Source: Mycobacterium sp. (GTDB taxonomy: Bacteria; Actinomycetota; Actinomycetes; Mycobacteriales; Mycobacteriaceae). From it: a stretch of DNA of 34,397 nt. Under the pieces are notes generated by a model, which was not told the DNA's origin, made no database searches, and was given only the letters and a program-made list of their open reading frames with translations. Below, one piece after another: positions 3,025 to 33,103 of this stretch. The stretch spans positions 1 through 34,397 of the forward strand of contig JAGQTU010000042.1 of assembly GCA_020438865.1 (NCBI GenBank), given 5' to 3'. Within the stretch, counting starts at the first letter, position 1, and the number at the start of each line of letters is the position of its first letter. Made by a program: the position numbers and the translations under genes.

Positions 3025-3030
3025 TAGATT
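3025..3030 (+). promoter_or_regulatory. Candidate -10 box upstream of GT2 gene
   Basis: TAGATT fits TANNNT and would start transcription near 3037, leaving room for the AAGGAG ribosome-binding site at 3045-3050. No convincing -35 at standard spacing. The stretch from about 2840 to here holds no gene I can recognise and is less GC-rich than its surroundings. Confidence 0.3.
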
Positions 3031-3058
3031 GCCCATCGTTCAAAAAGGAGCGTCGGGG

Positions 3059-4066
3059 ATGAGTGACTTGGCTCACGGACCGGGCGAGACGGAGCAGACG
3101 GCGGGCGCCGAAGGTGCCGACGCGGTCCGATACGTTCTCGGCCCCGATGGCCAACCGTTGATCGGTGCGGACGGCAACCCGATCATCGACCGCCGCCGCC
3201 CCAAGGGTGTGCGCCGGCCGAAAGATCCCCGGGTCAGCGTGGTGGTGCCGGCCAAGAATGAGTCCCCCAACATCCGCGAGATCCTGCCCTACCTCAAGGA
3301 CTATCACGAGGTCATCGTCGTGGTCAGTGTGGACGACCACGAATCCGCCGAGGCGGCTCGCCAAGCGCTGCCGACGGCGAAGGTCGTATTCCAGACCCGC
3401 AAGGGCAAGGGAAACGCAATGGCGTGCGGGTTCGCCGAGGTCACCGGCGACGCCATCGTGATGTTCGATATCGATGGTTCAGCCGATCCCCACGAGATCC
3501 CGCGGTTCATCAAGGCCCTGACTGACGGAGCCGACTTGGCGAAGGGGAGCCGGTTCTGCCGCGGCGGCGGTAGCGATGACATCACCCTGCTTCGCACGTC
3601 GGGTAACTTCGGTTTGAATCTGCTGGCCAGTGTGCTCACCAAGAGGCGCTTTTCGGACCTCTGCTATGGCTACAACGCTTTCTGGGCCGACCAGCTGTAC
3701 ATGCTGGATCTGCCTGACACCGAGGCCAATGATGCAGAGATGGTGCGCGGCGACGGTTTCGAAATCGAGGCGCTGATCATCGGCCGCTTCGCACTATCCG
3801 ACGCCGCCATCACCGAGGTACCGAGCTTCGAGCATGGTCGATATCACGGCCACACGAATCTCAACACCTTCCGGGACGGGTTCCGGGTGCTATGGACGAT
3901 CCTTCAGGATCGCGCCTATGCCCGGCGGATACGCACGCTCGCCAAGCGTCGTCACCTGAGCAGTGCGGCCGGCCCGCAACGCCCCGGCTGGATGACAGAC
4001 GAAGTGCGGCACGGGGTTCGTCGCATCAAGCGGCTCGACTTGGAGAGCATGCCCCGGACTGGATAG
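3059..4066 (+). CDS. Family 2 glycosyltransferase (DPM1-like)
   Basis: A 335-aa GT-A fold glycosyltransferase of the dolichol-phosphate mannose synthase type, probably cytoplasmic and acting on a lipid-phosphate acceptor. VSVVVPAKNES (59-69) is the nucleotide-sugar-binding strand, GKGNAM (116-121) the family loop, and FDIDGSADP (136-144) carries the metal-binding DxD (D137, D139). There is no C-terminal membrane domain. A 55-residue N-terminal extension contains a short tandem repeat, GPDGQPLI/GADGNPII. The ATG at 3059 has a good ribosome-binding site, AAGGAG, 8 nt upstream. The EEP-fold membrane protein gene follows after 11 bp, so the two are probably co-transcribed. Donor and acceptor sugars cannot be read from the sequence. 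Confidence 0.88.
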   Translation: MSDLAHGPGETEQTAGAEGADAVRYVLGPDGQPLIGADGNPIIDRRRPKGVRRPKDPRVSVVVPAKNESPNIREILPYLKDYHEVIVVVSVDDHESAEAARQALPTAKVVFQTRKGKGNAMACGFAEVTGDAIVMFDIDGSADPHEIPRFIKALTDGADLAKGSRFCRGGGSDDITLLRTSGNFGLNLLASVLTKRRFSDLCYGYNAFWADQLYMLDLPDTEANDAEMVRGDGFEIEALIIGRFALSDAAITEVPSFEHGRYHGHTNLNTFRDGFRVLWTILQDRAYARRIRTLAKRRHLSSAAGPQRPGWMTDEVRHGVRRIKRLDLESMPRTG

Positions 4067-4077
4067 GTTCGCTGGCG

Positions 4078-5139
4078 ATGCCAGCACCGACCGAGGCCGA
4101 CTCACCGCGCGGGCGTTCCCGATTCCGCCGCGCCGTGCGATACGCGGCCGCCGGGGTCCCCTTCGTCACCGCCACCGCAGCACTGACGGCGCGTTTCGTC
4201 CCGGTGACGAATCATCTCGTCCTGGCACTGGCCGCATGGTTTCCCTACCTGTTGATCGGCGCGGCCGTGGCCGCACTCCTGCTGCTGTTCACCCACCGGC
4301 GGTACATCGGCGCGGTCGCTCTGTTGCTTACCGCGGCCGCTGCAGGCGTGCAGATCCCGCTGTTCGTCGGCTCGAACGAGGTGCCGGCGAACACGGTCCC
4401 GGTGCGCCTGCTCACCGCGAACCTCAGCGAAGGGGCCGTGGATCCGAAACCTTTGATGGCCATCGCCCGCGACCGAACCGACCTCCTGCTCGTCCAGGAA
4501 CTCACGCCGCAACTTGCCGACACTCTGGCGGAGGACGGCATCGACACGGCGTTCCCGTATAAGGCACTCGATGCGCGACCCTTTGCCGCCGGGGTCGGCA
4601 TCTGGAGCCGCTACCCGATCGTGGGTTCGCGCCTAATCCCCGGCTACCGACTGGGCATGCTGAGCGCAAACATCCGTGTTCCGGGGGCGGCCGACGACGC
4701 CGTCGTGGTGGTCACACACCTGGCCGGCCCCTGGCCGCAACCTATCGATGACTGGGTCCGAGAGATCACCACGCTCCCTGACACGTTGCGCCAGGTGGCA
4801 ACCGGTGCAGGCGAGCGATCGGCAATCGTCGCCGGAGACTTCAACGCGACGTATGACCTGCAGCCGTTTCGGCGGCTCCTCCACGACGGCTTTCGCGATG
4901 CAGCCGAGCAGTCGGGCGCCGGGCTGACTCCAACCTTTCCCGCCGACAGCGTGGTGCCACCGCTGCTCGGAATCGACCGCATCCTGACTCTCAACGGCTC
5001 GACGACCGATGTTCAGACGGTGCGCATACCCGGCTCGGACCACCTCGGACTCAGCGCAACAATCCACACTCCCAGGCAGAGTCGGCCGGCGCTCACTGTG
5101 GTCGGTTCGAGTCCGTCTGTTGCTCCAGAACCTGGTTGA
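4078..5139 (+). CDS. Membrane-anchored endonuclease/exonuclease/phosphatase-fold protein
   Basis: A 353-aa protein with about three N-terminal membrane helices (roughly 23-42, 48-71, 77-96) followed by an EEP domain that probably faces outward. Catalytic signatures are Asn115 (LLTANLSEG), Glu141 (LLVQELT), GDFNAT at 253-258, IDR at 299-301, and the terminal GSDH motif with Asp321 and His322. The family cleaves phosphodiester bonds in DNA, phosphoinositides, sphingomyelin or similar substrates; membrane topology favours a lipid, glycan-phosphate or extracellular DNA substrate (inference). ATG 4078 was chosen because the longer open frame overlaps the upstream gene. Its 3' end overlaps the convergent disrupted membrane gene by 47 bp. 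Confidence 0.83.
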   Translation: MPAPTEADSPRGRSRFRRAVRYAAAGVPFVTATAALTARFVPVTNHLVLALAAWFPYLLIGAAVAALLLLFTHRRYIGAVALLLTAAAAGVQIPLFVGSNEVPANTVPVRLLTANLSEGAVDPKPLMAIARDRTDLLLVQELTPQLADTLAEDGIDTAFPYKALDARPFAAGVGIWSRYPIVGSRLIPGYRLGMLSANIRVPGAADDAVVVVTHLAGPWPQPIDDWVREITTLPDTLRQVATGAGERSAIVAGDFNATYDLQPFRRLLHDGFRDAAEQSGAGLTPTFPADSVVPPLLGIDRILTLNGSTTDVQTVRIPGSDHLGLSATIHTPRQSRPALTVVGSSPSVAPEPG

Positions 5140-5407: not shown

Positions 5408-6646
5408 CTAGGCGATTTGGCGTTGTTCGGCGAGGGGTTTGTCGGCGGCCTGTTTGGCGGCGATGACTTTGCGGAGCTCGGCCATGGAGATCTCAGACAG
5501 GTAGCGGCGGGTGACCTGCCATTCGTCGTGGGCCTCGATGACCACGGCAGTGGCCAGCCGGAGGAAAGCGGCCGGGTTCGGGAAGATCTCCACGACGTCA
5601 GCGCGGCGTTTGATCTCTTTGTTGAGCCGTTCGATCGGGTTGTTCGACCAGATCTTCTGCCAGTGCGCCCGCGGGAACGCGGTGAAGGCCAGAACGTCGG
5701 CTTTGGCCTCGTTCATCATGGCGGCCACCTTGGGGAAACTCGCCGCCAGGGAGTCGGCGACGGTGTCCCATTGGGTGGCGACTTCGGCGGGGTCGGTGTG
5801 GGCGAAGACCGTCTTGACTGCCGCGGTCACCGCCGGGGCGTGCTTGGCACTGACCGCGCCGTGCAGGTTGCGCATGAAATGCACCCGGCAGCGTTGCCAG
5901 GACGACCCCGAGAATTGTTGGGCGACGGCGGCTTTAAGTCCGGCGTGGGCATCGGAGATGACCAGGTGCACCCCAGCCAGACCTCGGGCCTTGAGGCTGG
6001 TCAGGAATTCGCGCCAGAACTCGTAGGATTCGCTGTCTCCGACCGCGGTGCCCAGCACCTCCCGGGTGCCCTCGATGGACACCCCGGTGGCCACGACCAG
6101 GGCCTGAGAGACCACATGAGCCCCGACGCGGACCTTGCAGAAGGTGGCGTCGCAGAACACGTACGGGAACTGGGTGTGGGTCAACGTCCGGGTGCGAAAT
6201 GCCTCGATCTCGCGGTCCAGGCCCCCACAGATCCGGGAGACCTCGGACTTGGAGATCCCCGAATCCACGCCCAAGGCGGCCACCAGGTCATCGACGCTGC
6301 GGGTAGAGACCCCGTGCACGTAGGCCTCCATGATCACCGCGTGCAACGCCTTGTCGATCCGCCGACGCCGTTCGAGCAGCGACGGGAAGAACGACCCCAC
6401 CCGCAGCTTGGGGATCTTGACCTCGATATCACCGGAGGTGCTCGACACCGTCTTGGGCCGGTGCCCATTGCGATGGGTACCGCGGTCCTCGGTGCGCTCG
6501 TAGCGGCCGGCGCCGATCTTCTCGGTGGCCTCGGCCTCGATCAGCGCCTGCAGCCCGGCGCGGATCAACTCGGCGAACACCGCACCGGCATCGGCAGACT
6601 TCAGGGCGTCGAGCTGGGCGAGCAGGGCAGAATGGTCATGGGTCAT
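5408..6646 (-). CDS. IS256-family (mutator-type) DDE transposase
   Basis: A full-length 412-aa transposase. The DDE catalytic residues are readable: Asp166 in FCDATF, Asp232 in VISDAHAGLKAA, and Glu339 in NNPIERLNKEIKRR. The family signature between the second Asp and the Glu, SWQRCRVHFMRN, is at 249-260 and includes the C/H pair C253-H256. No frameshift or internal stop is visible, so it is probably active. The ATG at 6646 lies about 150 bp inside the right end of the element. Confidence 0.96.
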   Translation of the reverse strand: MTHDHSALLAQLDALKSADAGAVFAELIRAGLQALIEAEATEKIGAGRYERTEDRGTHRNGHRPKTVSSTSGDIEVKIPKLRVGSFFPSLLERRRRIDKALHAVIMEAYVHGVSTRSVDDLVAALGVDSGISKSEVSRICGGLDREIEAFRTRTLTHTQFPYVFCDATFCKVRVGAHVVSQALVVATGVSIEGTREVLGTAVGDSESYEFWREFLTSLKARGLAGVHLVISDAHAGLKAAVAQQFSGSSWQRCRVHFMRNLHGAVSAKHAPAVTAAVKTVFAHTDPAEVATQWDTVADSLAASFPKVAAMMNEAKADVLAFTAFPRAHWQKIWSNNPIERLNKEIKRRADVVEIFPNPAAFLRLATAVVIEAHDEWQVTRRYLSEISMAELRKVIAAKQAADKPLAEQRQIA

Positions 6647-7356: not shown

Positions 7357-9348
7357 GTGGAATGGAACCTGCTGCGCCGCCTTGCAGCACTTGCCGGGAG
7401 CATCGTAATGCTTGGCTGGATGGTGCCCTATGCAGGCGCTGAGCCCACCAATGGCGGCGCTCTTCTTGACTCTCCGACCATTTCACTGGCCGACCTGGGC
7501 TCTTCAACAATGGTTACTTTCAAGGGGGATCGACAGACCACCACCGCGTCGGTGTCGTTTCCGGTCCCGGTCGGATTGGTGCCCGTGGCTCTGACGGCGA
7601 CTCTCAAGCTCCCGACCCCGGCTCGATTCGGCAGTATCACCGTCACTCAGGACGACAGATTCATCAGCCGGATCGGGGTGGGCCCCTCAGATGTGGGCCC
7701 GGTGAACATCCCCCTCGTCGGTACCCAGGTCTTCGGTAACTTCGTGGGTCTCACGTTGACGTCAACCATCATCCCGGTTGACGGATACTGTTTCGATGCG
7801 CTTAACCCGGTCCAGATCCTAGACGGTTCAGTCAAATTCGCCGGGCGGGAAACCGCACCGACGTCGGTCGCCGCATTCATGCCGCCGGTACTGCGCAAGC
7901 TGACGGTCGCCCTTCCCCCGAAGCCGTCAACCGCGGAATCCGACGCAGCAGTGCAACTGATCGCAGCGGTGCAGGCCAAGTACGGCGGATCGAGAAGGAC
8001 GTACGCCGTCATACCGCTTGGCGACGGCGCGACCGCCCTGCCGCCGGCGGCGCCCCTGGAACGGCAGATAGTCATCAAAGAGGGTCCTGACAAAGGACTT
8101 TCACTCCAGGGCAACATGGGGGTTCCAGCATTGCTGATCTCGGGGCCCGCCGATGAGCTCAAGAACCAGACGCGGTTGCTGACCGATGACTCACTCAATC
8201 TCGCACAGACCCCCAAGGCGGTGGCCGGACCGCTGGAAACCAGGCAGAAGATCGTCGGCGACCACACCACCCTCAAAGAATTGGGTATGGGCGAGTTCAC
8301 CTCGATTGGTCTGTGGCCCGAGGTGGGAATCGATTTGGAGCAGACGAAATTCGGCCACCCGCTGCAGGGGGTCCGGGTACACCTCATCGGCTCGTACACA
8401 CCCCCCGCGCCTGACTTCGGCGCCCAAGTCACCGCCGAAGCCGGCGGGGAGACGCTCGGTCGCTGGCCGGGTGAGGCCAACGCAACCATCGACCACTGGG
8501 TGGATATTCCAGACCGTCTGTTGAAACGCAGCACCACGCTCACCGTGTCTGTCACCACTACCGGTAACGCGGGATACTGCGGTGCTTACCTGCCCCTCAA
8601 CCTCAGGATCGACGGCAGCACCGAAGTTCAGGTCGGCGGCATCTCCAAACCGCCTCTGCCGGCGGGGTTCACCTCGCTGCCGCAGGCCTTGATGCCGAAG
8701 GTACTGATCGGCATCGGTGCTAACGCCTTGCCCGACACCATGCGCGCGGCACAGATCATCGCGGGACTACAACGCTTCAGTTCGGTGCCCGTCATGACCC
8801 AGGTGACCAGCCTCCAGCAGGCGGTCAGCAGCAAAGACCCGGCGATTCTCATCGAAGCGGACAATTGGACGCAGAAATCGATCGGACTGCCGATCACCGC
8901 CGACAACGGGCATATCACCGTCGCAGGGATCGATCCCGACGGCAAGTCCGTCAAGCTGACGCTCGAGCCCGCGATGAAGGTCGGCTCGCTGCAGACCGTG
9001 TTCGACGGACAACGTTCGGTGCTGATCGCTACGTCGAACGGTTCGGCCGCGCAACTCGACGAACTGTTGCGGTGGCTGTCCAGCGACCCGGACCGATGGC
9101 CGGGGCTGAACGGCCGGGCGATCATCTCCCTCCAGGGCCAGCCGCCGGTCGCCATCCCCATTCCGCAGAGCGAGCTTCCCTCGGAGACGGAGCCGGCGAC
9201 CGGCCCCTCGAGCGGCTTCGGGATGGTCTGGAAAATCGCCGCCGGTGTCGTGGCCGCCGCCGTCGTCGGCGCCGCCCTCATCCTGCTGAGGGTTCGGCGC
9301 CGTCGACCGAAAGCGGACCCGCCGCTCGAGACCCCCCAGGACGAGTGA
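7357..9348 (+). CDS. BcsB-like exported, membrane-anchored glycan-export subunit
   Basis: A 663-aa protein resembling BcsB, the periplasmic partner of cellulose synthase. After a signal peptide (about 1-28, ending near AGA-EP), two related halves each carry the family's Cys-to-IDGS pattern: GYCFDAL with ILDGS (about 143-158) and GYCGAYLPLNLRIDGS (about 406-421). A single C-terminal membrane helix (about 623-644) precedes an arginine-rich cytoplasmic tail, the BcsB topology. GTG 7357 is preferred to ATG 7324 because it gives a compact signal peptide and has a -10 box at leaderless spacing. It heads the operon, and its stop overlaps the next start (GTGA). No BcsA synthase with PilZ domain is present nearby, so cellulose itself is not assured. 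Confidence 0.8.
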   Translation: MEWNLLRRLAALAGSIVMLGWMVPYAGAEPTNGGALLDSPTISLADLGSSTMVTFKGDRQTTTASVSFPVPVGLVPVALTATLKLPTPARFGSITVTQDDRFISRIGVGPSDVGPVNIPLVGTQVFGNFVGLTLTSTIIPVDGYCFDALNPVQILDGSVKFAGRETAPTSVAAFMPPVLRKLTVALPPKPSTAESDAAVQLIAAVQAKYGGSRRTYAVIPLGDGATALPPAAPLERQIVIKEGPDKGLSLQGNMGVPALLISGPADELKNQTRLLTDDSLNLAQTPKAVAGPLETRQKIVGDHTTLKELGMGEFTSIGLWPEVGIDLEQTKFGHPLQGVRVHLIGSYTPPAPDFGAQVTAEAGGETLGRWPGEANATIDHWVDIPDRLLKRSTTLTVSVTTTGNAGYCGAYLPLNLRIDGSTEVQVGGISKPPLPAGFTSLPQALMPKVLIGIGANALPDTMRAAQIIAGLQRFSSVPVMTQVTSLQQAVSSKDPAILIEADNWTQKSIGLPITADNGHITVAGIDPDGKSVKLTLEPAMKVGSLQTVFDGQRSVLIATSNGSAAQLDELLRWLSSDPDRWPGLNGRAIISLQGQPPVAIPIPQSELPSETEPATGPSSGFGMVWKIAAGVVAAAVVGAALILLRVRRRRPKADPPLETPQDE

Positions 9349-11786
9349 AGCTGATCCGGGGCGGTGTTGGGGCCGAACCGGGCGATCCGGCGGTGCGCGC
9401 CGCTCGTACCCACGCTGCTGTCAGCGGTCATGATTACCGAGTGATCCTGCTCGCCTGGCAAGTGTGTGCGCTTGGCTTGCAGGTCATTGCCGTGACCCTC
9501 GCGCGGCGCAGTCACGGCTATGAGGCCGCTTTGTTCGGCTTTGCCGCCCTTGCGACCGCGTACGGAAGCGCGCTCTGGGTTCTCATCAGGCCGCAACTCA
9601 GCCGGGCTGCGCGCAACGCCGCGGTGCTGTGCCTCGGTCTGACGCCCACGTTGATCTGGCGTGCCACCAATCCGCTCCTGTTCACCGGCTTCGACGAACA
9701 ACTCCACATGCGCACGCTCGGCGACATTCTGTCCTCGCACCGACTCTTCGAGGCAAACCCGCTGCTGCAGGTGAGCCCGCGCTACCCGGGTATCGAAACG
9801 ATCACCGTCTTGGTGCACCAGACCGGTATCCCCACGATGGCGTCGGCTGTGATCGTCGTCATCTTGTGCCGCATCGTGCTGGTCACCGTGTTGTGCGATG
9901 CAGTCGAGCAGTTGACCGGCAACATGCGGGCCGGCGGACTGGCCGTCGCCGTCTACGCGCTGGGGCCGCAGTTCATCTTCTTCAACTCCCAGTTCTCCTA
10001 TCAGACGCTGTCAATTCCGTTGGCGCTGTCGGCGGTCAGTCTCATCGCCCGCTCGCGCTGGTCCGACGATCCGCTGCCGCTGTTGTTCGGCGCGACCGTC
10101 TGCCTTCTCGGCACCGCGATGTCGCATCACGTGACCAGCTTCTTGACCGCGGTGTTCCTGCTGCTGTGGATGCTGTTCCAACGGGGTCCCGCCAGGCTGC
10201 GCGTCACCTACGGAGCGCTGGCCGCGATAGCGACAACGGTGGCCTGGATGATCGTGCAACGGGCGCTTCTCGAGGAATACTTCGGTCCCATCATCCACGA
10301 CGTGACCGCTTCGGCCGAGAAAGGTGAGAAACGGGAGGCCTTCAAGGACTCGGCGGGAACGCCCACACCGCTCAGGGACACTCTGCTGCTTCTGTACTAC
10401 GCCGCAGCGGTGGTGTTGGTGGTGACGGCTCTGGGGGTGCTCGCCTTGTACTGGTGGCGCCGAGGTGATCGCCACATCTTGCGATGGAATCCCCGATTGC
10501 TGGCTCTGCTGTTGTGCGGCGCCATCCCGGTTACCATGGCGGCACGCGTCATCCCCAAGGGCGGCGAACTTTTCGACCGGGGGAGCAGTTTCCTCTTCTT
10601 TCCGTTCGCACTGATCTTCGCGAGTTTCGCCGTTCGGCTGTGGTGGCCGGACCACCCGAACCCCCCACCCGAGCGACCTCCCGGGCGGCTGGTGGCGGGA
10701 TTGCAGGCGATCGCCCGGGGCGCGAGCACCCGCCTCGGGCTGGCCCGCCGGCCATGGATAGGACGTTTGCTGGTGGTCGTCATGGCCTCGGCATGGTTCG
10801 TCAGTGGCTTCGTGCTGGGCGCCGGGCCTTTTTGGGCTCGGCTACCGGGCCCCTATCTCGTTGCCGCCGACACTCGTTCGATGGACGCCGAGGTACTCGC
10901 GGCCGCCAGGTGGGCGCGCTACGAACTGCCGGCCGGCAGCCGCATCGTCGGCGACCGGGTCGGCTCAGACCTGCTCGCTTCGCAGGCCGGTGTGTGGCCA
11001 GTGATGAAGGCGAACGGTGTGTCCGCACCGCCGCTGTACTTCGCGGACGAGTTCGGCCTCCCCGAACAGGACATCATCCGCAGCCTGCGGCTGCGCTACC
11101 TCTATGTCGACCGCCGGCTCGCCCTCGAACTGCCCCACTTCGGGTCCTACTTCGAAAGCGGCGAGCCCGGCGACGGCCACCTGAAACTGACCGATGCCCA
11201 ACTCGCCAAGTTCGACAAGGTTCCCGGGATCAAGGAGATCTATCGGCACGGCCCGATTTCGATCTACGACCTCAAGGGGCTCGGCGTGCCGGAGGAGCGC
11301 AACGGCTGGTACGGGGAAACCCCGTCGGTCTCTCTCGCGCGACAGCTGACCCTCGGCGCGCTGTTCGGGTTCCTGTTCGTCCTCGTCCCCCGCACGCGGA
11401 TCTGGCCACGGGTGATCCGGCTTACCAAGAGGCTGCGTCGCGCCGCTGGGCCCGCGCTCCTCGGGGGTATCGCCCTTGCGGGAGCCGGCATCGTCTCGGC
11501 GACCCTGCTGCTGCTCGGTATCTGGCTGACTCCGCTGGTCTTCGCGTCGGCCGCCGTCGTCGTCGTGGCGACAAGGCCCCGTCGCGTGGCATCCGTGCTG
11601 CGACGGACGGCGCGGAAAGTCGCGGGCGTGGTCACATGGCCGAGGGCGCGCGTCGCCGCCCTGCTCGCGGTACCGCTTGCCGCAATCATCGCGGTGGCCG
11701 TTCGCGAAGCTGCCGCGGAAGACATCACCCGGGTGCAGCAGATTCTCGACGACCCGGCGGCGGTCCATATATCGCCGAACGGCTAA
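9345..11786 (+). CDS. Large polytopic membrane protein, GT-C glycosyltransferase-like
   Basis: An 813-aa protein with an N-terminal block of roughly ten or more membrane helices (about 30-500), a soluble domain (about 500-655) and further C-terminal hydrophobic segments near 660-680, 700-735 and 765-785. The first large loop contains FDEQLHMRT (D117, E118), the acidic position typical of lipid-phosphosugar-dependent GT-C enzymes. This suggests transfer or polymerisation of a sugar on the outer membrane face (inference). GTG 9345 overlaps the BcsB-like stop as GTGA, implying coupled translation; the longer open frame back to 8865 lies inside the upstream gene. A Wzy-like polymerase is the main alternative. 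It could fill the role that BcsA plays beside BcsB. Confidence 0.65.
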   Translation: MKLIRGGVGAEPGDPAVRAARTHAAVSGHDYRVILLAWQVCALGLQVIAVTLARRSHGYEAALFGFAALATAYGSALWVLIRPQLSRAARNAAVLCLGLTPTLIWRATNPLLFTGFDEQLHMRTLGDILSSHRLFEANPLLQVSPRYPGIETITVLVHQTGIPTMASAVIVVILCRIVLVTVLCDAVEQLTGNMRAGGLAVAVYALGPQFIFFNSQFSYQTLSIPLALSAVSLIARSRWSDDPLPLLFGATVCLLGTAMSHHVTSFLTAVFLLLWMLFQRGPARLRVTYGALAAIATTVAWMIVQRALLEEYFGPIIHDVTASAEKGEKREAFKDSAGTPTPLRDTLLLLYYAAAVVLVVTALGVLALYWWRRGDRHILRWNPRLLALLLCGAIPVTMAARVIPKGGELFDRGSSFLFFPFALIFASFAVRLWWPDHPNPPPERPPGRLVAGLQAIARGASTRLGLARRPWIGRLLVVVMASAWFVSGFVLGAGPFWARLPGPYLVAADTRSMDAEVLAAARWARYELPAGSRIVGDRVGSDLLASQAGVWPVMKANGVSAPPLYFADEFGLPEQDIIRSLRLRYLYVDRRLALELPHFGSYFESGEPGDGHLKLTDAQLAKFDKVPGIKEIYRHGPISIYDLKGLGVPEERNGWYGETPSVSLARQLTLGALFGFLFVLVPRTRIWPRVIRLTKRLRRAAGPALLGGIALAGAGIVSATLLLLGIWLTPLVFASAAVVVVATRPRRVASVLRRTARKVAGVVTWPRARVAALLAVPLAAIIAVAVREAAAEDITRVQQILDDPAAVHISPNG

Positions 11787-11799
11787 CAGGGCCGACGCG

Positions 11800-12804
11800 A
11801 TGGACCAGAATCCTCCTGTGCTCCCCACACCTGCGCCACATGAGCAAGACGGCACCCCGGGTCTACCGACCTGCGCGGTGGTGATCTGCGCATACACCGA
11901 CGAACGCTGGGACGACACGCTACGAGCGGTCGACTCCGTTCAGGCTCAACGACCGGCGCCATACGACCTGATCCTGGTGGTTGACCACAATCCGGAGTTG
12001 CAGACCCGTCTGGCCGCACAACTGCCCGGCGTTCGGGTGGTGGCCAACAGCAACGAACGCGGCCTTTCCGGAGCCAGGAACACCGGTGTCGAACTCACCG
12101 ACGCCGATGTTGTCGTTTTTCTCGATGACGACGCGGCCGCCCAGCCCGGTTGGCTCGAAGGGCTGGCTCGCCATTACTCCGACCCGAACGTCCTGGGTGT
12201 CGGTGGACGCATCGACCCGTTGTGGGCAACCGAACGGCCCGAGTGGTGGCCGCCCGAATTCGACTGGGTCGTCGGCTGCAACTACACCGGCCAGCACGCC
12301 GGCGTCGTTCGCAATCTCATCGGTGCCAATGCCTCGTTCCGGCGGGAGTTGTTCGCCGACGGCGGATTCGTCACCGGCATCGGTCGGTCCGCAACCGTCC
12401 AACGGCCGGTCGGATGCGAGGAGACCGAGTTCTGCATCAGGGCCGGCCAAGCGCGGCCGAATGGAATCTTCCTGTACGACGATCAGGCCCCGGTCGTGCA
12501 TCGCGTACCCGCCGCGCGGCAGAGCTTCGCGTACTTTCGTTCCCGCTGCTACTCGGAGGGGCTGTCGAAGGCTCAGGTGACCGAGAGCGTCGGCGTCGGA
12601 ACCGGATTGGCCTCCGAATGGACGTATTCGACCGTGACCCTCCCACTGGGAGTACTCCGGGGACTGGGGCGGGCGGTCCGCGGCGACTGGGCCGGCTTGC
12701 AGACGGCGACCGTCATCGTGATCGGCCTGGCTTACACCACCGTGGGCTACGTGGTCGGTGTGTTGTCCGGCTTGCGGGGACGGTTGGGAGGTGGGTTGCG
12801 TTGA
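11800..12804 (+). CDS. Family 2 glycosyltransferase
   Basis: A 334-aa GT-A fold enzyme. CAVVICAYTDE (25-35) opens the nucleotide-binding fold and FLDDDAAAQPGWL carries the metal-binding acidic triplet (109-111). GANASFRRELF and EETEFCIRAG match the acceptor-side motifs of rhamnosyl/galactosyl-type GT2 enzymes. A C-terminal hydrophobic stretch (about 305-327) may tether it to the membrane. It starts 13 nt after the GT-C-like gene. ATG 11800 is chosen because a longer frame overlaps that gene; GTG 11818 is an alternative. It probably adds a sugar to a lipid-linked intermediate on the cytoplasmic face; the sugar is unknown. Confidence 0.88.
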   Translation: MDQNPPVLPTPAPHEQDGTPGLPTCAVVICAYTDERWDDTLRAVDSVQAQRPAPYDLILVVDHNPELQTRLAAQLPGVRVVANSNERGLSGARNTGVELTDADVVVFLDDDAAAQPGWLEGLARHYSDPNVLGVGGRIDPLWATERPEWWPPEFDWVVGCNYTGQHAGVVRNLIGANASFRRELFADGGFVTGIGRSATVQRPVGCEETEFCIRAGQARPNGIFLYDDQAPVVHRVPAARQSFAYFRSRCYSEGLSKAQVTESVGVGTGLASEWTYSTVTLPLGVLRGLGRAVRGDWAGLQTATVIVIGLAYTTVGYVVGVLSGLRGRLGGGLR

Positions 12805-13919
12805 CCGATCCGACGAGCAAGAGACCACTTCGCGTCGCGATGGTGTCCGCCAGGGCCCTGCCTTTGATGGGCGGCATCGAGACCCATGTCCACGAGGTCT
12901 CCCGCAGGCTGGCCGCCGCCGGTGTGGACGTTACCGTGCTCACCACCGACACTTCCGGCGACTTGCCGCCCGACGAGATGGTGTCCGGCTACCGAACTCG
13001 GCGCTGGCCGTCCTATCCGCGTTCCCGGGACTACTATCTGTCCCCGGGGTTGGGCCGCCACCTGCTGGATTCGCGCGGCGAGTACGACGTTGTTCACGTG
13101 CAGGGCGTGCATGCGCTCGTCGCGCCGATGGCCCTGGCGGCGACCCGGCGCGCACGCATACCCTCGGTTCTGACATTTCATACCGGGGGCCACTCGTCGG
13201 GTCTGCGAGAGTCGTTGCGCCCCTTGCAGTGGAGGCTGCTTGCGCCGCTGCTGCGCTCGGCCGCAGCGTTGGTGGCCGTGTGCGAGTTCGAACGCGAGAA
13301 CTTCGCCCGCACGCTGCGTGTCCCGGAATCGAGTATCCGGTTGATCAGAAACGGTTGCGACCCACTGCCTGTCGACTCTTCGCTCCCGAAACCGCCGGGT
13401 AACCCGTTGCTGGTCTCCGTCGGCCGGTTGGAGCGCTATAAGGGTCACCACCGAATCCTGCAGGCGATGCCGGCGATTCTGAAGCAGGCGCCGGATGCCA
13501 GGCTGGCACTGATTGGCGGTGGCCCCTACGAACAGCCGCTGCGGGACATGGCCGACGAACTGGGTGTCGCAGACCGGCTGTCCATCCGCGCCTTCGGCCC
13601 GCAGGAGCGCGCGGCCATGGGGAGCATGGTCGCGAACGCCGATGTGGTGTGTCTGCTCAGCGAGTACGAGGCTCATCCGGTCGCGGTGATGGAGGCGATC
13701 GGCACCGGAAGCAAAGCGCTCGTCGCCGATACGTCGGGGCTGTCCGAACTCGGCCGGGACGGTCTGGTGACGCTTGTTCCCCTCGAGGCGTCCCCTGAAC
13801 AGGTTGCTGCTGCGGCGCTCGCGGTGGCAGCGGCGCCGCGGACCGCGCCGCCCCACGTGCAGACCTGGGACGACTGCGCCGACCAACTGCTCCGGCTGTA
13901 CGACGAGGTGCGGGCGTGA
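12801..13919 (+). CDS. Family 4 glycosyltransferase (first of pair)
   Basis: A 372-aa GT-B fold retaining glycosyltransferase. The N-terminal domain has the MGGIETHVHE loop (23-32). The C-terminal domain has SVGRLERYKG (206-215) and the EX7E donor-site motif in SEYEAHPVAVMEA (E290, E298). The start is a TTG overlapping the previous stop (TTGA), with GGGAGG 9 nt upstream. The in-frame ATG at 12840 would cut into the first beta strand and is less likely. It is tightly coupled in the operon, and the following GT4 starts inside its stop codon. Confidence 0.9.
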   Translation: MTDPTSKRPLRVAMVSARALPLMGGIETHVHEVSRRLAAAGVDVTVLTTDTSGDLPPDEMVSGYRTRRWPSYPRSRDYYLSPGLGRHLLDSRGEYDVVHVQGVHALVAPMALAATRRARIPSVLTFHTGGHSSGLRESLRPLQWRLLAPLLRSAAALVAVCEFERENFARTLRVPESSIRLIRNGCDPLPVDSSLPKPPGNPLLVSVGRLERYKGHHRILQAMPAILKQAPDARLALIGGGPYEQPLRDMADELGVADRLSIRAFGPQERAAMGSMVANADVVCLLSEYEAHPVAVMEAIGTGSKALVADTSGLSELGRDGLVTLVPLEASPEQVAAAALAVAAAPRTAPPHVQTWDDCADQLLRLYDEVRA

Positions 13920-15163
13920 GAATCCTGTTGCTGGCCCAGTTCCTGCCGCCGGTCTCGGGTGGCGAGGAGCGTCATGTCTGGAATCTCGCCCGTGCCCTGG
14001 CAACCCGGGCACATGACGTCACGCTGCTCGGCTTCGCCGCCGGCGACGACGAACCCGGCGACACGTTTTCCGAAGGGGTCCGGTTGGTGCGGGTCCGCAC
14101 GGCGGCGTCCCGACTGCCGGTCCTGTACAGCGACCCCACGCGGCCGCACGCGCTGCCGGTGCCCGACCCGGTGGTCAGCCGGGCGATCCGTGACGAGCTT
14201 TCCGCGGGCGGGTTCGACGTGGTGCACGCGCACAACTGGATCGTCAACAGCGCGTTGGGGCCGGCAGCGAAAGCCGGTGTGCCGCTGGTCATGACGCTGC
14301 ACGATTACAGCCACATCTGCGCGACCAAACGGCTCATGGAACACGGGGTCAAGCGGTGCCCGGGGCCGTCCCCCCGCCGCTGTCTGTCCTGCGCATCAGA
14401 CCATTACGGGGCCGTGAGCGGTGCCATCACCCTCACCGGCAACGCCTGGTCGGCGCGGCGCCGGGCAAGACACGTCTCCGACGCCGCCGCCGTGAGCAGC
14501 GCCGTAGCGGATGCCGTCGCGGTGCCGGCCGGCCAATGGTTGCACAGCGCCCGACTCGAGGCCCGGGTCATCCCGAACTTCATTCCCGACGAGATCATTC
14601 TCGACGAGATCCCCCCGATCGAGCCTGACGCGCCGCTGCTCTTCGTCGGCGACCTCAGTCCGGACAAGGGGGTGCAGACCCTCCTCGACGCCTACGAGAT
14701 GCTGACTTCCCCGCCGCCCCTCGTTCTCGCCGGGCGCTCCGCGACACCCGAACCGTGGCGGTTTCCGCCCGGTGCTCGCTGGGAAGGTCCGTTGCCGCAC
14801 GATGCCGTCGTCAGACTGTTCCGGTCGGCCCGGCTGGTGGTGGTCCCGTCCGTCTGGGCCGATCCGTGCCCGACGGTGGTCCTCGAAGCCATGGCGGCGG
14901 GTAGGCCCGTCGTAGCCGCCGCGTCGGGTGGCATTCTCGATATGGTGGTGGACGGCCGCACCGGCCTGCTGGTTCCGCCCGGTGACACGGTGGCGCTCGC
15001 GAAGGCGCTCCTCTCGGTGTTGAGCGATCCTGACACCGCGCATGAATTCGGTGTGGCGGGTCGGGGCCGGGCACGCGAGTTCACGGTGAGTTCCGTGGTG
15101 GAGCGTATCGAGAGGATGTACGCCGACGCCATCGCGAGCCGAAGGGTCTCGGCGGGCGGATGA
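13916..15163 (+). CDS. Family 4 glycosyltransferase (second of pair)
   Basis: A 415-aa GT-B fold enzyme. The N-terminus reads FLPPVSGGEERHVWNLA (10-26), and GDLSPDKGVQTLLDAYE opens the donor domain. The donor site is DPCPTVVLEAMAAG, with Asp in place of the first Glu of EX7E, a common variant. Four cysteines (C135, C148, C156, C159) form a CX12CX7CX2C cluster that looks like a structural metal site and is absent from the preceding GT4. GTG 13916 overlaps the upstream stop (GTGA), and the flippase ATG overlaps its own stop (ATGA). The two GT4s probably add successive sugars to one repeat unit. Confidence 0.9.
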   Translation: MRILLLAQFLPPVSGGEERHVWNLARALATRAHDVTLLGFAAGDDEPGDTFSEGVRLVRVRTAASRLPVLYSDPTRPHALPVPDPVVSRAIRDELSAGGFDVVHAHNWIVNSALGPAAKAGVPLVMTLHDYSHICATKRLMEHGVKRCPGPSPRRCLSCASDHYGAVSGAITLTGNAWSARRRARHVSDAAAVSSAVADAVAVPAGQWLHSARLEARVIPNFIPDEIILDEIPPIEPDAPLLFVGDLSPDKGVQTLLDAYEMLTSPPPLVLAGRSATPEPWRFPPGARWEGPLPHDAVVRLFRSARLVVVPSVWADPCPTVVLEAMAAGRPVVAAASGGILDMVVDGRTGLLVPPGDTVALAKALLSVLSDPDTAHEFGVAGRGRAREFTVSSVVERIERMYADAIASRRVSAGG

Positions 15164-16509
15164 CAAGCGCAGGCGCCTCGGACAACGACCGTGACGTCCA
15201 GGCCGAACATCGAAGTAAGCTCCGTTTTCTGCTGCGTAGCGCCGCCGCTCTGGTGTCAACTTCGATCGTCACCTCGGGACTGGGATTCATCTACTGGGCG
15301 GTCGCCGCCCGAATGTTCCGGGCGACCGACGTCGGCGAGTCCGCCACCGCCATCGCGGCAATGAGCCTCATCGCACCATTCACCGTGCTCGGACTGGGCA
15401 CGGTGCTGGTGAGCCGGCTCCCCACGATGCGCAGCGGCCGCGCCGAGCTGGTGGCGACCGCCACCGTGGTCAGCGGGCTGGTCGGGACCATCGTCGCCCT
15501 GGTGGGTGCATTCACGTTGCCGAGTGACTTCCTCGGGCTGCCAGGTATCGGTAGGGACGTCGGCATCACAGTGCTCTTCGTCGTTGCCGTTGCGACCCAA
15601 GGAATGGGGTACCTGCTCGACTACGCGCTGCTGAGTGCCATCGGCGGCGGAATGCAGCTCGGGCGCAACACGATTCAGGCGATCGTGAAGTTGGTACTGC
15701 TGGTTGTGCTAGCCCTGACGTTGGCAAGGTTCGGTTCGCTCGTCATCGTCGCAAGCTGGGCCGTGGCGAACGTGGTCTCGATCGCGGCGGTGATCGGCCT
15801 ACTGATGCGGCAATTCCCGCAGCCGCTCCGTCACGTGATGCCGAGGCTGTCAGCGCTGCGTGGAATTCACTTCGCCGCAGCAAAACACCACATGCTGAAC
15901 ATCGCACTGTTCACGCCCTTCTTCGCCATGCCGATCCTGGCCAACGTCATCCTCGGCTCCGAGCAGGCCGCCTATCTCTATGCGACGTGGCAGGTGGCCG
16001 GGTTCTTGTTCTACGTACCGATCGCGCTGGCGACGGCGCTGTTCGCTTCCGGTGCGCGAGATGCCAGCACATTCGTCATGGAGTTCCGCTTCACGCTCCG
16101 CTACGCCCTGCTCATCTGTGCGGCGGCCAATGTCGGGGTCCTGCTGCTCGGTGGATGGGTGCTCAGGATTTTCGGCCCCGACTACGCCGCGAACGGGCGA
16201 ATTGCCCTGATCTTCATGTGCCTCGGCGGATTCGGGCTGATCATCAAGGACCACCACGTGGCGATTGCGAGGGTCACCGAAACGGTTGGGCGCGAAGCGA
16301 TCCTGGTTGGTGCGCTGGGCCTCGGCGAGTTGGTCGGCGCTGCGATTGGCGCCTGGCGCGGCGGGCTCAACGGCCTCGGTTTGGGCTGGCTGGCCGCGGT
16401 GGCACTGGAGGCGTTGGTGTGCGGCCCGCTGGTATGGCGCGCCTACCGGGGGAGGCTCGTGATCACCAGCGGTGAACGGGGCACGGCCGCGGAGGCCGGA
16501 CAAGGATGA
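15160..16509 (+). CDS. Wzx/MATE-type oligosaccharide flippase
   Basis: A 449-aa membrane protein with about twelve to fourteen hydrophobic helices, starting after a charged 25-residue N-terminus. The helix pattern and the GFIYWAVAARMFRATDVGE segment, like the first helix-loop of polysaccharide-export (Wzx, RfbX) proteins, support a role in flipping lipid-linked oligosaccharides across the cytoplasmic membrane. ATG 15160 overlaps the GT4 stop and its own stop overlaps the acyltransferase start, both as ATGA. Presence of a flippase together with an outward-facing GT-C-like protein indicates assembly on a lipid carrier rather than synthase-dependent extrusion. Confidence 0.87.
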   Translation: MTSAGASDNDRDVQAEHRSKLRFLLRSAAALVSTSIVTSGLGFIYWAVAARMFRATDVGESATAIAAMSLIAPFTVLGLGTVLVSRLPTMRSGRAELVATATVVSGLVGTIVALVGAFTLPSDFLGLPGIGRDVGITVLFVVAVATQGMGYLLDYALLSAIGGGMQLGRNTIQAIVKLVLLVVLALTLARFGSLVIVASWAVANVVSIAAVIGLLMRQFPQPLRHVMPRLSALRGIHFAAAKHHMLNIALFTPFFAMPILANVILGSEQAAYLYATWQVAGFLFYVPIALATALFASGARDASTFVMEFRFTLRYALLICAAANVGVLLLGGWVLRIFGPDYAANGRIALIFMCLGGFGLIIKDHHVAIARVTETVGREAILVGALGLGELVGAAIGAWRGGLNGLGLGWLAAVALEALVCGPLVWRAYRGRLVITSGERGTAAEAGQG

Positions 16510-17801
16510 GGGTTCTCGAATCCGGTGCCACACCGGTTCGCATGGCGCCCGCTGATGCCTGGTACCTCTTCGAGAAGGGCATTCACGCCGATCAACTCAT
16601 GGTGTATGCGTTCGCCGGAAGCCCGCCGTCCGTCGAACGCGCAGTCGAGGAGGTGGTCGGACGGGCCCGGGGTTGTCCCGAACTCCGGCTACGGGTCACC
16701 CACCGCCGGTTCGGCCTGGGAATTCCGGGGTGGGTTCCCGCTGACATCGATGCCGGGCAGATTCGCATCCACGACCTGCAGTCGCCCGAGTGGTCGGAGT
16801 GCCTGAATGCAGTCGCTCGGATCATCGCCGAGCAACAAGTCGATCCGTGGCAGGCGCTGTGGCGATTCCATGCCTTCCCCGATGTGAAGAACGTGCCCGC
16901 GAGCCAGGGGCAGTCTTCGACAGTGGTTGTCCTGCAGTTCAGCCACGCCTTCGCCGACGGCATCCGGTCCGCTGCTTTGGCCGGCTTCTTGTTCGGGCGG
17001 ACCGCACCGCTGCCGGCGATCACTCCACTGCCGGTCGGCTGGTCCCTCAGTCGAGTTCTCGAGGCGGTCCGCTGGCGGCGACAACTCGTCCGCGACACCG
17101 AGGCCGGCCTGGTGGCACCGCCGCCGTCGCCGGTGCCGGCGCTGAGCATCAACCACCAACCGGTCGGTACCCCCATCCTGCGGACCGTAGTCCGGCCACG
17201 GTCGAAGCTGCCGGAGGGTTCGGTCACCGTCGGAGCGCTCGTCGCGATCTCGGAAGCGCTGTCGGGGTACCTGAGCGAGCGGGGGGAGGATGCGTCCTTG
17301 CTGACCGCGCTCGTGCCGATATCCAAACCGGGAGTCCCGAACGCGCGCAATCACTCCGGTCCCGAATTCATCGACCTGCACCCCGCTGTCAGGGCGCGTG
17401 ACGAACGGGCTCGCCTGATCGCCACCGAGCTGCAGCACTGCCAGCAGCGGCGTCGGCATCCGGCGCTCGCCGCTGACGAGTTGGCGTTGACAGCCTTGCC
17501 GGGGCCACTGCTGAGGTGGGGCGTGCCGCGATTGCAGCGGCGGTCCACGACGGTGGTGGACGACACGGTGTTGGGCAATACGTCGGTGTCCAGCGTCAAC
17601 CGCGGGATGGCTGATCTGCACTTCGGCGGGTGCCCGGTGATCATGTCCTGCGGATATCCGTTTATGACGCCCGCCATCGGACTGACGCACGGGGTGCACG
17701 GCATCGGGGACACGGTCGCGATCAGTGTGAACACGACCGAAGCGGCCATGTCGGACATCGACAGCTACATGGACCGCTTGAACGCCAGCCTGCGGCCTTA
17801 G
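16506..17801 (+). CDS. WS/DGAT-like acyltransferase in the glycan operon
   Basis: A 431-aa protein related to bacterial wax-ester synthase/diacylglycerol acyltransferases and other condensation-domain acyltransferases. The catalytic motif HHxxxDG appears as SHAFADG (146-152); the second, catalytic His147 is kept while the first His is Ser. The C-terminal VLGNTSVSSVNRG region resembles the family's NxSNVxG motif. It is the last gene of the operon, starting on an ATGA overlap, and ends 10 bp before a convergent gene. In this setting it more likely acylates a sugar or lipid-linked glycan than makes storage lipid; that is inference. A polyketide-associated (Pap-like) acyltransferase is another possibility. 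Confidence 0.75.
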   Translation: MRVLESGATPVRMAPADAWYLFEKGIHADQLMVYAFAGSPPSVERAVEEVVGRARGCPELRLRVTHRRFGLGIPGWVPADIDAGQIRIHDLQSPEWSECLNAVARIIAEQQVDPWQALWRFHAFPDVKNVPASQGQSSTVVVLQFSHAFADGIRSAALAGFLFGRTAPLPAITPLPVGWSLSRVLEAVRWRRQLVRDTEAGLVAPPPSPVPALSINHQPVGTPILRTVVRPRSKLPEGSVTVGALVAISEALSGYLSERGEDASLLTALVPISKPGVPNARNHSGPEFIDLHPAVRARDERARLIATELQHCQQRRRHPALAADELALTALPGPLLRWGVPRLQRRSTTVVDDTVLGNTSVSSVNRGMADLHFGGCPVIMSCGYPFMTPAIGLTHGVHGIGDTVAISVNTTEAAMSDIDSYMDRLNASLRP

Positions 17802-20346: not shown

Positions 20347-20531
20347 GGCGTCGGCCTCCCCGAGATGCGTGCCAGGTAAACCGTACGCGGGACCGTTCTC
20401 GTTAACGCAGGTCTTCGGAAAGAAACCGCCCGTGGGGCGGAAAGGCACCGGAATCGAACGTGGCAGGAGCACGATCCGGCCGCGACCGTTGATAGTCCAG
20501 TCCAACGACGGTTCGCACGGCCGGCGCTGGC

Positions 20532-26387: not shown

Positions 26388-27197
26388 CTACAGCGGATTC
26401 CAGCTCACCCAGTCGACGAGCATGGTGGCCGGAAACCGCGTCGAATCATCCGGTGGACCGGCCCAGCTGCCGCCGACCGCCAGGTTCAGGATCGCGTAGA
26501 AGGGCTTGTTGAACACCCACGTGGCGTCGGCAGGAATCGAGTCGGGCGTGAATGTTCCCCACGTCGTGTCGTCCACCCCGACGGTGATCGCATTCTCGGT
26601 ATGGGTCATCCAGTAGTTATGGAAGTCCTGGCTCAGGTCCGAGCCCGTCCCCGAAATCTGAGCCTGCTGAAAGGCGTTGGTGGAGTCCCGCATCGGACCG
26701 TGCAGCGCGGAGTAATGCGTCTCGGCATCGGATACGAATTCGACGACGTCGATCTCGCCCGAACCCGGCCACGGGTTGCTGTTCTCATCGGAGCCCACCA
26801 ACCAGAATGCCGGCCACAAGCCATGGCCGGACGGCATCTTGATGCGGGCGGTCAGGGTGCCGTAACCGAATTCGACCCTGTCCTTGGTCTGCACCCGGCC
26901 GGAGTTGTAACCCCCGGCTGTGTTGTCGGCACGGATCACAAGGTGGCCTTCTCCATCGAGAGCGGCATTGTCGGGAACGTACTCCTCGACTCCCGCATCC
27001 AACCCACTGCCGTACGCATACGCCCAGTGCTCCGGGTTGGGAGGTGCACCGGCGGGCCCGTCGAAATCGTCGAACATGGGGTTTGCGCCGGCCGGCGGCG
27101 CCAGCACAACTGCGACGGTGACTACCGTGAGGCTCGCCAGAGTTGGCCGCAGGTACCGGCGGGGGATGAACCCACGGGTAACGGCAGCTGCCAACAC
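26388..27197 (-). CDS. Secreted GH16 beta-glucanase
   Basis: A 269-aa enzyme with a signal peptide (about 1-38, ending near PAGA-NP) and a GH16 jelly-roll catalytic domain. The signature GEIDVVE is at 147-153, giving nucleophile Glu148, Asp150 and acid/base Glu153. GLWPAFWLVG just before it is typical of laminarinase-type endo-beta-1,3-glucanases. It would cleave an extracellular beta-glucan; the exact linkage is not readable. GTG 27197 is chosen because GAGAGGGGG lies 5 nt upstream and the signal peptide then starts at once; the open frame extends to 27272. Upstream, 27198-27487 contains no gene I recognise. Confidence 0.9.
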   Translation of the reverse strand: MLAAAVTRGFIPRRYLRPTLASLTVVTVAVVLAPPAGANPMFDDFDGPAGAPPNPEHWAYAYGSGLDAGVEEYVPDNAALDGEGHLVIRADNTAGGYNSGRVQTKDRVEFGYGTLTARIKMPSGHGLWPAFWLVGSDENSNPWPGSGEIDVVEFVSDAETHYSALHGPMRDSTNAFQQAQISGTGSDLSQDFHNYWMTHTENAITVGVDDTTWGTFTPDSIPADATWVFNKPFYAILNLAVGGSWAGPPDDSTRFPATMLVDWVSWNPL

Positions 27198-32901: not shown

Positions 32902-32907
32902 CGTCGC

Positions 32908-32913
32908 AGCGTA
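32908..32913 (-). promoter_or_regulatory. Candidate -10 box, leaderless GTG at 32901
   Basis: TACGCT on the minus strand fits TANNNT and lies 6 nt before GTG 32901. The 202-bp region to priA is divergent. Confidence 0.4.
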
Positions 32914-33103
32914 TGCCCAGATCAGCCCGCCATATGCAGAACGGAGACCTCGCCCGGGTCGGGTGCCGAACTCACCGGACGCCGCAAGGCCGTGGGTGGC
33001 GCGGCACTGCCGACTGATGAACCACCGCACATTGTCGGCGGTCGCTGTCACCATCGGTAGTGTTCGCGAGACGCGGGGTCGCACTGGGCAGGGACGGGGG
33101 CAG

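What the first reader, a model, noticed from the sequence alone, without database searches (positions are those of the whole stretch)
7357..17801. BcsB-like protein in a lipid-carrier glycan operon without BcsA: possible undescribed mycobacterial surface-glycan system
Seven genes run in one direction, five of the six junctions overlapping by 3-4 nt: BcsB-like surface protein, GT-C-like membrane protein, GT2, two GT4s, Wzx-like flippase and WS/DGAT-like acyltransferase. BcsB normally works with the BcsA synthase, which needs no flippase. Here BcsB is coupled (GTGA) to a large GT-C-like protein in a flippase-type pathway. This suggests a different machine in which a BcsB-like guide acts with an outward-facing transferase or polymerase to build an acylated glycan. 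Neighbouring GH16, GH15, PhoD-like and DUF4832 genes could process the product.
Basis: partly seen in the sequence, partly recalled or inferred. Interest (0 to 1): 0.82.

Follow-up and report, generated by a model that had tools for sequence, protein, structure and literature searches.

The report
Cellulose-guide protein in a flippase operon
A mycobacterial gene cluster pairs a relative of BcsB, the protein that normally guides cellulose out of its synthase, with a lipid-carrier sugar pathway and no such synthase, and related genomes suggest that this partner swap is recurrent.

Summary
Seven co-directional genes (7357-17801) have five 4-nt overlaps in six junctions. The first is a remote BcsB: Foldseek ranks 1-22 are BcsB, and profile comparison with proteobacterial BcsB gives E 4.6e-12 while shuffled controls fail. 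The second has a GT-C fold. The operon has no BcsA-like synthase, and the mycobacterial type was not found in the 91%-complete genome.

Beside sampled BcsB relatives the commonest marker is a CelA-like GT2 (54 of 129, non-random sample). In the tree the window's protein falls in a derived 30-row clade found mainly in flippase-type or synthase-free loci, including five co-directional PGT, Wzx, GT, BcsB, Wzz, Wzy runs. Close g2 relatives occur in 16 of 297 genus genomes; BcsB is linked in 9, absent nearby in 3 and from the whole assembly in 2.

A DPM-like synthase and a glucanase-type GH16 belong to the cluster; GH15 and PhoD did not recur. g1-g2 coupling is not conserved; acylation is open. Best reading: a periplasmic glycan guide recruited from a synthase to a lipid-linked, GT-C-finished pathway. 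Function is inferred.

The parts
7357..9348 (+). g1, BcsB-like secreted and membrane-anchored protein (663 aa): apparent signal peptide, CBD1-FD1-CBD2-FD2, C-terminal TM
9345..11786 (+). g2, GT-C-fold membrane glycosyltransferase (813 aa), conserved DEQLH motif, soluble domain about 500-660, four extra C-terminal TM segments
11800..12804 (+). g3, GT2 without QxxRW (non-processive); best NCBIfam hit is haloarchaeal AglG (184 bits, far below its cut-off)
12801..13919 (+). g4, GT4 glycosyltransferase
13916..15163 (+). g5, GT4 glycosyltransferase
15160..16509 (+). g6, Wzx/MOP-type flippase candidate (12 TM-like segments, weak PF01943)
16506..17801 (+). g7, WS/DGAT-like acyltransferase with HxxxDG; found again only in the closest relative
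3029..4066 (+). DPM-like GT2 (polyprenyl-phosphate sugar synthase candidate); fused to g3 in one relative
4135..5139 (+). membrane-anchored endonuclease/exonuclease/phosphatase-fold protein recurring in the related loci
26388..27197 (-). GH16 beta-1,3-glucanase-type glycanase, ExDxxE intact; follows g6 in the related loci that have it
28171..30489 (+). GGDEF-EAL c-di-GMP enzyme; adjacent to the cluster in the closest relative

Best explanation
The cluster makes a surface glycan on a polyprenyl carrier. A DPM-like GT2 (3029-4066) makes a polyprenyl-phosphate sugar, g3-g5 extend a lipid-linked oligosaccharide in the cytoplasm, and g6 flips it. g2, an outward-facing GT-C enzyme, uses the flipped lipid-linked donor to join or decorate the glycan. 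g1, a BcsB homologue with no BcsA, is anchored on the outer face, and its stacked carbohydrate-binding and ferredoxin-like domains hold or pass on the growing chain, in trans, much as fused carbohydrate-binding modules serve other GT-C enzymes. A secreted GH16 glucanase trims the product, and c-di-GMP may tune output. g1 arose from the BcsB partner of a CelA-like synthase and was recruited to flippase-type loci. Shown by computation: the folds, the cluster's conservation, the context of relatives and the tree. Inferred: donor, acceptor, polymer or oligomer, and every physical contact.
For: BcsB homology of g1. GT-C fold of g2. The DPM-like neighbour's best solved relatives are dolichol-P-mannose synthase and ArnC; homologues (>=35% identity) lie within 12 kb of g2 in 5 of the 17 named loci and near more distant g2 relatives, and one is fused to g3 in L097. 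Conservation: 16 of 297 genus genomes have close g2 relatives; g1 is linked in 9 of the 12 with informative flanks; GH16 is near g2 in 12 of the 17 named loci. GH16's ExDxxE glutamates and aspartate are invariant in 12 of 12. In the tree, the ten g2-linked BcsBs and five from Wzx/Wzz/Wzy gene runs group together (SH-aLRT 83) inside 18-row (99) and 30-row (100) clades; the only two CelA-labelled rows in the 30 are the first copies of tandem BcsB pairs. Those five Wzx/Wzz/Wzy genomes have no CelA-like GT2 hit. CBMs in GT-C enzymes: PMC11127046 (passages).
Against: g1-g2 adjacency and orientation are not conserved; outside the window and its closest relative, g1's usual neighbour is GH16. Of the 16 genomes with close g2 relatives, three (G336, G505, G513) have no BcsB near g2, and two more with fragmented or incomplete assemblies (G342, G504) have no BcsB match at all. 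The operon has no Wzy and no initiating phosphosugar transferase, so a polymer is unproved. g6 is below the Pfam cut-off. The SH-aLRT of the 15-row group is only 83, from a quick search, and a sixth row with Wzx and Wzy labels (L177) falls elsewhere. The genome is 91% complete in 366 contigs, so an absent BcsA is not proved.
Confidence: 0.5

Rival explanations
1. g1 works as an ordinary BcsB with a processive GT2 encoded elsewhere in the genome; its place in the operon is incidental.
For: 7 of 16 genomes with close g2 relatives carry a strong CelA-like GT2 (>=300 bits), a family with the BcsA motifs TED and QRSRW. The window's genome has one multi-TM GT2 with QxxRW at C327.
Against: The other 9 of 16, the window's genome included, have none or only weak hits. 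In the 5 of the 7 that I checked, a BcsB lies beside the CelA-like gene itself, and in 3 of these (G308, G438, G487) a further BcsB lies with g2-cluster genes; G287 and G411 were not checked. The C327 GT2 occurs in 15 of 297 genomes at E<=1e-60 and in 3 of the 16 with close g2 relatives.
Confidence: 0.15
2. g2-g6 plus the DPM-like GT2 form a complete flippase/GT-C glycosylation module (three-component-like) and g1 is a hitchhiker or a leftover duplicate.
For: Synthase-free BcsB copies near a sulfatase are common (12 of 129 genes). g1 position and strand vary. G336, G505 and G513 have g2 without linked g1, and G342 and G504 have g2 but no BcsB match.
Against: g1 is retained in 9 of 12 informative loci of a divergent cluster (g2 identity down to about 55%). 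Its clade is shared with BcsBs lying inside co-directional Wzx/Wzz/Wzy runs.
Confidence: 0.2
3. The product is an acylated oligosaccharide or glycolipid, or a protein-linked glycan, not a polysaccharide; the GT-C acts like an oligosaccharyltransferase or a single-sugar transferase. (This overlaps with the best explanation, which leaves polymer or oligomer open.)
For: No Wzy in the operon; the genome's only Wzy_C hit is at C344. g7 is acyltransferase-like, and 7 of 17 named loci have another WS/DGAT gene by BcsB. g2 resembles STT3 and AftA, and g3 and the DPM-like GT2 resemble AglG and AglJ, enzymes of archaeal glycoprotein assembly.
Against: The oligosaccharyltransferase motif WWDxG is present in 0 of 19 and 0 of 17 g2 proteins. 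A glucanase-type GH16 and a BcsB guide fit a chain better. g7 itself is not conserved.
Confidence: 0.3

Closest known systems
BcsB of the proteobacterial cellulose synthase BcsA-BcsB
   Same: Fold (CBD-FD repeats) and near full-length profile match, apparent signal peptide and C-terminal TM; c-di-GMP enzyme and glycanase genes nearby
   Different: No BcsA partner; flippase-type operon; no PF03170 hit; no BcsC expected in this envelope (recalled)
Mycobacteriaceae BcsB + Xrt-like + CelA-like GT2 + PMT-like loci (seen here; no name found)
   Same: Same BcsB family (about 27-50% identity to g1)
   Different: Those loci carry a processive GT2 with TED/QRSRW; the window has none
Wzx/Wzy-dependent exopolysaccharide loci (e.g. 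Actinoplanes imp and wps-1, PMC13390465, passages)
   Same: GTs and flippase; sister BcsBs lie in Wzx/Wzz/Wzy runs
   Different: No Wzy, Wzz or initiating PGT in the window; GT-C instead; the word BcsB does not occur in the held text of the Actinoplanes paper
Three-component GtrB/flippase/GT-C glycosylation (PMC11127046, abstract and passages)
   Same: Polyprenyl-phosphate sugar synthase, flippase candidate and GT-C; CBMs serve such GT-Cs
   Different: Three additional cytoplasmic GTs, a separate BcsB and a GH16
Sfz1/xag stalk clusters (PMC8250860, passages)
   Same: BcsB-like protein in a non-cellulose exopolysaccharide cluster
   Different: There it is paired with a QxxRW GT2 (Sfz2), so a BcsA-type partner exists

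Membership tests
BcsB | BcsB fold (two CBD-FD units, C-terminal TM) | tested here: met
   the last FD and C-terminal stretch of the model are low confidence
BcsB | PF03170 above the curated cut-off | tested here: not met
   no hit for g1; the C20 paralogue scores 15.2 against 21
BcsA-BcsB synthase | adjacent processive GT2 with TED and QxxRW | tested here: not met
   g3 and the 3029 GT2 lack both motifs; no match to the CelA-like query in the genome
BcsA-BcsB synthase | makes cellulose | not testable with these tools
   needs chemistry
Wzx/Wzy pathway | Wzx flippase | tested here: inconclusive
   PF01943 below cut-off for g6; 10 of 13 homologues match at E<=0.01
Wzx/Wzy pathway | Wzy polymerase and initiating PGT in the locus | tested here: not met
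   for the operon; Wzy_C only at C344, PF02397 only at C346 and C366
Oligosaccharyltransferase (STT3/AglB/PglB) | GT-C fold | tested here: met
Oligosaccharyltransferase (STT3/AglB/PglB) | WWDxG motif (recalled as diagnostic) | tested here: not met
   present in 0 of 19 and 0 of 17 g2 proteins
Three-component GtrB/flippase/GT-C system | polyprenyl-phosphate sugar synthase plus GT-C | tested here: met
   by homology only
Three-component GtrB/flippase/GT-C system | dedicated GtrA or MATE flippase for the lipid-P-sugar | tested here: inconclusive
   g6 is Wzx-like, its substrate unknown
Haloarchaeal AglJ-AglG pathway | AglJ and AglG models above cut-off | tested here: not met
   92 against 325 and 184 against 440 bits

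The most novel reading that the evidence does not exclude
Mycobacteria have uncoupled BcsB from its synthase and reuse it as a general periplasmic glycan guide for lipid-carrier pathways: with a GT-C finishing enzyme in the window's system and with Wzx/Wzz/Wzy in sister loci. This would be a hybrid of synthase-dependent and flippase-dependent export, standing in for part of the Wza-type export route that these cells are not known to have (recalled).
Probability: 0.45. Interest if true: 0.87.

Novelty: new variant of a known kind. Interest (0 to 1): 0.7.

Why it matters
How mycobacterial matrix polysaccharides are made and cross the periplasm is open. One review says that the M. [quoted passage not shown] a 2025 paper calls the mycobacterial machinery unknown (PMC12167362, passages). 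This work points to concrete gene sets: a CelA-like/BcsB-like pair in many genomes of the genus, and BcsB copies moved into flippase-type loci. If right, BcsB is a reusable guide module and not only a cellulose synthase subunit, which can be tested by gene removal and glycan chemistry.

Tried and rejected
Sequence searches of g1 and g2 against PDB chains found nothing useful; only folds and profile-profile comparison worked. The g6 profile also found no solved relative. g1 in plasmids: no match. A PF03170 search of the own genome was empty, so Pfam alone would have dismissed the BcsB reading.

The idea that an unlinked CelA-like GT2 explains g1 was tested on 297 genomes and put at 0.15. The idea that g1-g2 translational coupling is the key evidence was dropped. 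I first wrote that acylation is not conserved; one search showed a second WS/DGAT family next to BcsB in 7 of 17 named loci, so that is now open.

The 129 BcsB contexts are not a random sample, the labels come from home-made HMMs at E<=1e-12, and many of the 47 'Wzx/Wzy' labels rest on Wzx plus PGT genes within 8 kb on the other strand. Only five loci show one co-directional run. Left out there: short loci (L001-L030, L051-L077), L096 and L097-L113 (largely the same assemblies as fetched G handles). For the tree, 128 rows of at least 560 aa were thinned to 91, and L135 was labelled g2-linked by hand because its g2 lies on another contig. The gene finder in the scripts is home-made, trained on the seven operon genes, so starts are approximate. 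One of the eight BcsB references (Croceicoccus) is the BcsB part of a longer BcsA-BcsB gene, taken as the open frame of the fetched stretch. VIA-align lists CBM-like rows below BcsB; no absence is concluded from them. Counts near g2 depend on contig ends.

Not seen in print, within searches of the held library only: a BcsB in a mycobacterial flippase-type locus.
Full report
OBSERVATION. The window is one whole contig (G000:C306, 34,397 bases) of a 4.96-Mb genome, 90.9% complete in 366 contigs. Seven + strand genes run from 7357 to 17801 with 4-nt overlaps at five of six junctions. Pfam and NCBIfam name g3 (GT2), g4 and g5 (GT4), weakly g6 (Polysacc_synt, under the cut-off) and g7 (WS/DGAT); g1 and g2 have no Pfam hit.

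IS g1 A BcsB? Yes. The first half of the g1 family matches its second half by profile comparison (E 8.9e-5, probability 60%), as expected of a CBD-FD duplication. A profile of 36 g1 relatives matches a profile of eight BcsB proteins (seven proteobacterial plasmid-collection records and E. coli K-12) over 532 columns at E 4.6e-12, probability 97.6%. The reversed profile and five column shuffles give probability 0.3% or less, and the g2 profile 0.4%. Using only the 11 sequences from g2-linked loci still gives E 6.4e-8. The AlphaFold2 model (pTM 0.49) is good over most of residues 40-490 and poor after about 500. Foldseek's first 22 PDB rows are all BcsB, and VIA-align's first nine as well. Hydropathy shows a C-terminal TM segment at 619-648.

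HOW COMMON IS g1? BcsB-like matches occur in 112 of 251 family genomes and 184 of 297 genus genomes. The window's genome has three: this one, C20 (49%) and C344 (27%). C20 lies beside a sulfatase and FGE pair. C344 lies beside a gene labelled Wzz-like by my HMM, with the genome's only Wzy_C hit about 6 kb away.

WHERE DO RELATIVES SIT? In sampled loci, 54 of 129 BcsB genes have a CelA-like GT2 within 8 kb, usually in the order BcsB, exosortase-like, CelA-like GT2, PMT-like. That GT2 has TED and QRSRW, in the places where E. coli BcsA has TED and QRIRW. Nine have g2, 12 a sulfatase without a synthase, 47 Wzx/PGT/Wzy/Wzz genes nearby, 7 other. The sample is not random and many of the 47 are loose neighbours. 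The clean cases are five loci (L122-L126) with PGT, Wzx, GT2-GT4, BcsB, Wzz and Wzy_C in one direction; Pfam was run on L122 only and the other four were labelled by similarity to it. In those five genomes neither g2 nor the CelA-like GT2 was found.

TREE. A quick IQ-TREE of 91 of 128 BcsB rows puts the window with its 80% relative (100), then with all ten g2-linked rows and the five Wzx/Wzz/Wzy rows (83), in an 18-row set with the C20 paralogue (99) and a 30-row set (100). The only CelA-labelled rows inside the 30 are L127_6628 and L128_6993, each the first of a tandem BcsB pair whose second copy is nearer the GT2. A sixth row with Wzx and Wzy labels (L177) falls elsewhere. The simplest reading is duplication beside a synthase, then recruitment to flippase-type loci. 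The root is a midpoint, for drawing only, so direction is inferred from the CelA-linked rows on both sides.

THE g2 CLUSTER. g2 relatives are found in 6 of 251 family genomes and 31 of 297 genus genomes, 16 of them close (at least 45% identity and 100 bits). Of the 16, g1 is linked in 9 (G000, G253, G278, G308, G340, G411, G438, G439, G441) and not near g2 in 3 with full flanks (G336, G505, G513). Four could not be judged by flanks: G342 and G504 have no BcsB match anywhere in their assemblies, G487 has BcsB beside g3-like and GH16 genes on another contig, and G287 was not fetched. A named search gave 17 loci, mostly metagenome assemblies, plus Mycobacterium sp. M26, Mycobacterium sp. 1164985.4, M. 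komossense and M. palustre. BcsB is within 10 kb in 10 of 17 and GH16 in 12 of 17; these assemblies largely overlap the unnamed ones. In L097 the order is GGDEF-EAL, DPM-like GT2, EEP, an opposing 172-aa gene, g1, g2, fused GT2, g4, g5, g6, GH16, g7. In the window a Mutator-type transposase (5408-6646) now lies between the EEP gene and g1, and GH16 and GGDEF-EAL lie downstream. A WS/DGAT gene unlike g7 lies one or two genes from BcsB in 7 of the 17 (L098, L101, L103, L104, L106, L107, L108), at 80-95% identity, so it may be chromosomal flank.

CHEMISTRY HINTS. The 3029-4066 GT2 is closest to dolichol-P-mannose synthase and ArnC among solved proteins and to AglJ-type models. In L097 a homologue is fused to g3 in one 641-aa open frame; this is one metagenome assembly. 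g3's best model is AglG. What AglJ and AglG do in haloarchaea is recalled. Three of the related assemblies (L085, L104, L106) carry a 768-774-aa gene; in the two scanned (L085, L104) it is an epimerase plus UDP-glucose dehydrogenase fusion, hinting at uronic acid. GH16 matches bacterial beta-1,3-glucanases best (2hyk, 3e-74) and keeps E148, D150 and E153 in all 12.

BcsA ELSEWHERE? The CelA-like GT2 query has no match in the own genome. Strong hits (300 bits or more) occur in 7 of the 16 close-g2 genomes: G287, G308, G336, G411, G438, G487, G513. Of ten own-genome GT2 matches to PF13641, only C327 has QxxRW and many TM segments. It lies among uvrC, whiA, gap, pgk and tpi-like genes (named from memory of such sequences) and occurs in 15 of 297 genomes at E<=1e-60, three of them close-g2 genomes. 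It remains the one residual candidate.

LITERATURE. PMC6364259 passages say that M. tuberculosis does not seem to encode BcsA or BcsB while some other mycobacteria hold putative cellulose synthase genes; PMC12167362 passages call the mycobacterial machinery unknown. PMC8250860 passages describe a BcsB-like protein with a QxxRW GT2 in stalk clusters. PMC7112194 passages treat BcsB within cellulose operons. PMC13390465 and PMC11127046 were seen as passages. Searches listed no paper on a mycobacterial BcsB in a flippase-type locus; the library lacks most subscription journals.

VERDICT. A real, conserved and apparently undescribed mycobacterial glycan cluster with a true BcsB homologue and no BcsA.

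Noticed in passing
L041:9679-16389 and similar loci (L037-L049, L127, L132, L138): A widespread Mycobacteriaceae locus: BcsB-like, exosortase-like, CelA-like GT2 with TED/QRSRW and PMT-like proteins, often with a sulfatase and its FGE-type activating enzyme in the window's genus. A candidate for a cellulose-like synthase of mycobacteria.
   Followed up: partly
L122-L126: BcsB inside a co-directional PGT, Wzx, GT2-GT4 fusion, Wzz, Wzy_C run, with DUF4832 and GGDEF-EAL genes close by in four of the five.
   Followed up: partly
L097:12562-14487: Natural fusion of the DPM-like GT2 with the AglG-like g3 in one open frame.
   Followed up: partly
window 5408-6646: Mutator-family transposase between the EEP gene and g1, apparently interrupting an ancestral gene order.
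   Followed up: no
window 28171-30489 and 30508-33054: Two EAL-domain proteins; the first has an intact GGDEF, and both read ELL where EAL is expected near the start of the EAL domain, so phosphodiesterase activity is uncertain.
   Followed up: no
L127, L128: Tandem BcsB-like genes, the first close in the tree to the synthase-free C20 copy, the second nearer the CelA-like GT2.
   Followed up: partly
L098:10516-11910 and homologues in L101, L103, L104, L106, L107, L108: A highly conserved WS/DGAT-family gene unlike g7 next to or near BcsB in these loci; cluster member or chromosomal flank is unsettled.
   Followed up: partly
window 18346-20505: GH15 with a trehalase-like N-terminal domain; best NCBIfam hits are trehalases below their cut-offs, so perhaps trehalose metabolism and not this glycan.
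   Followed up: no
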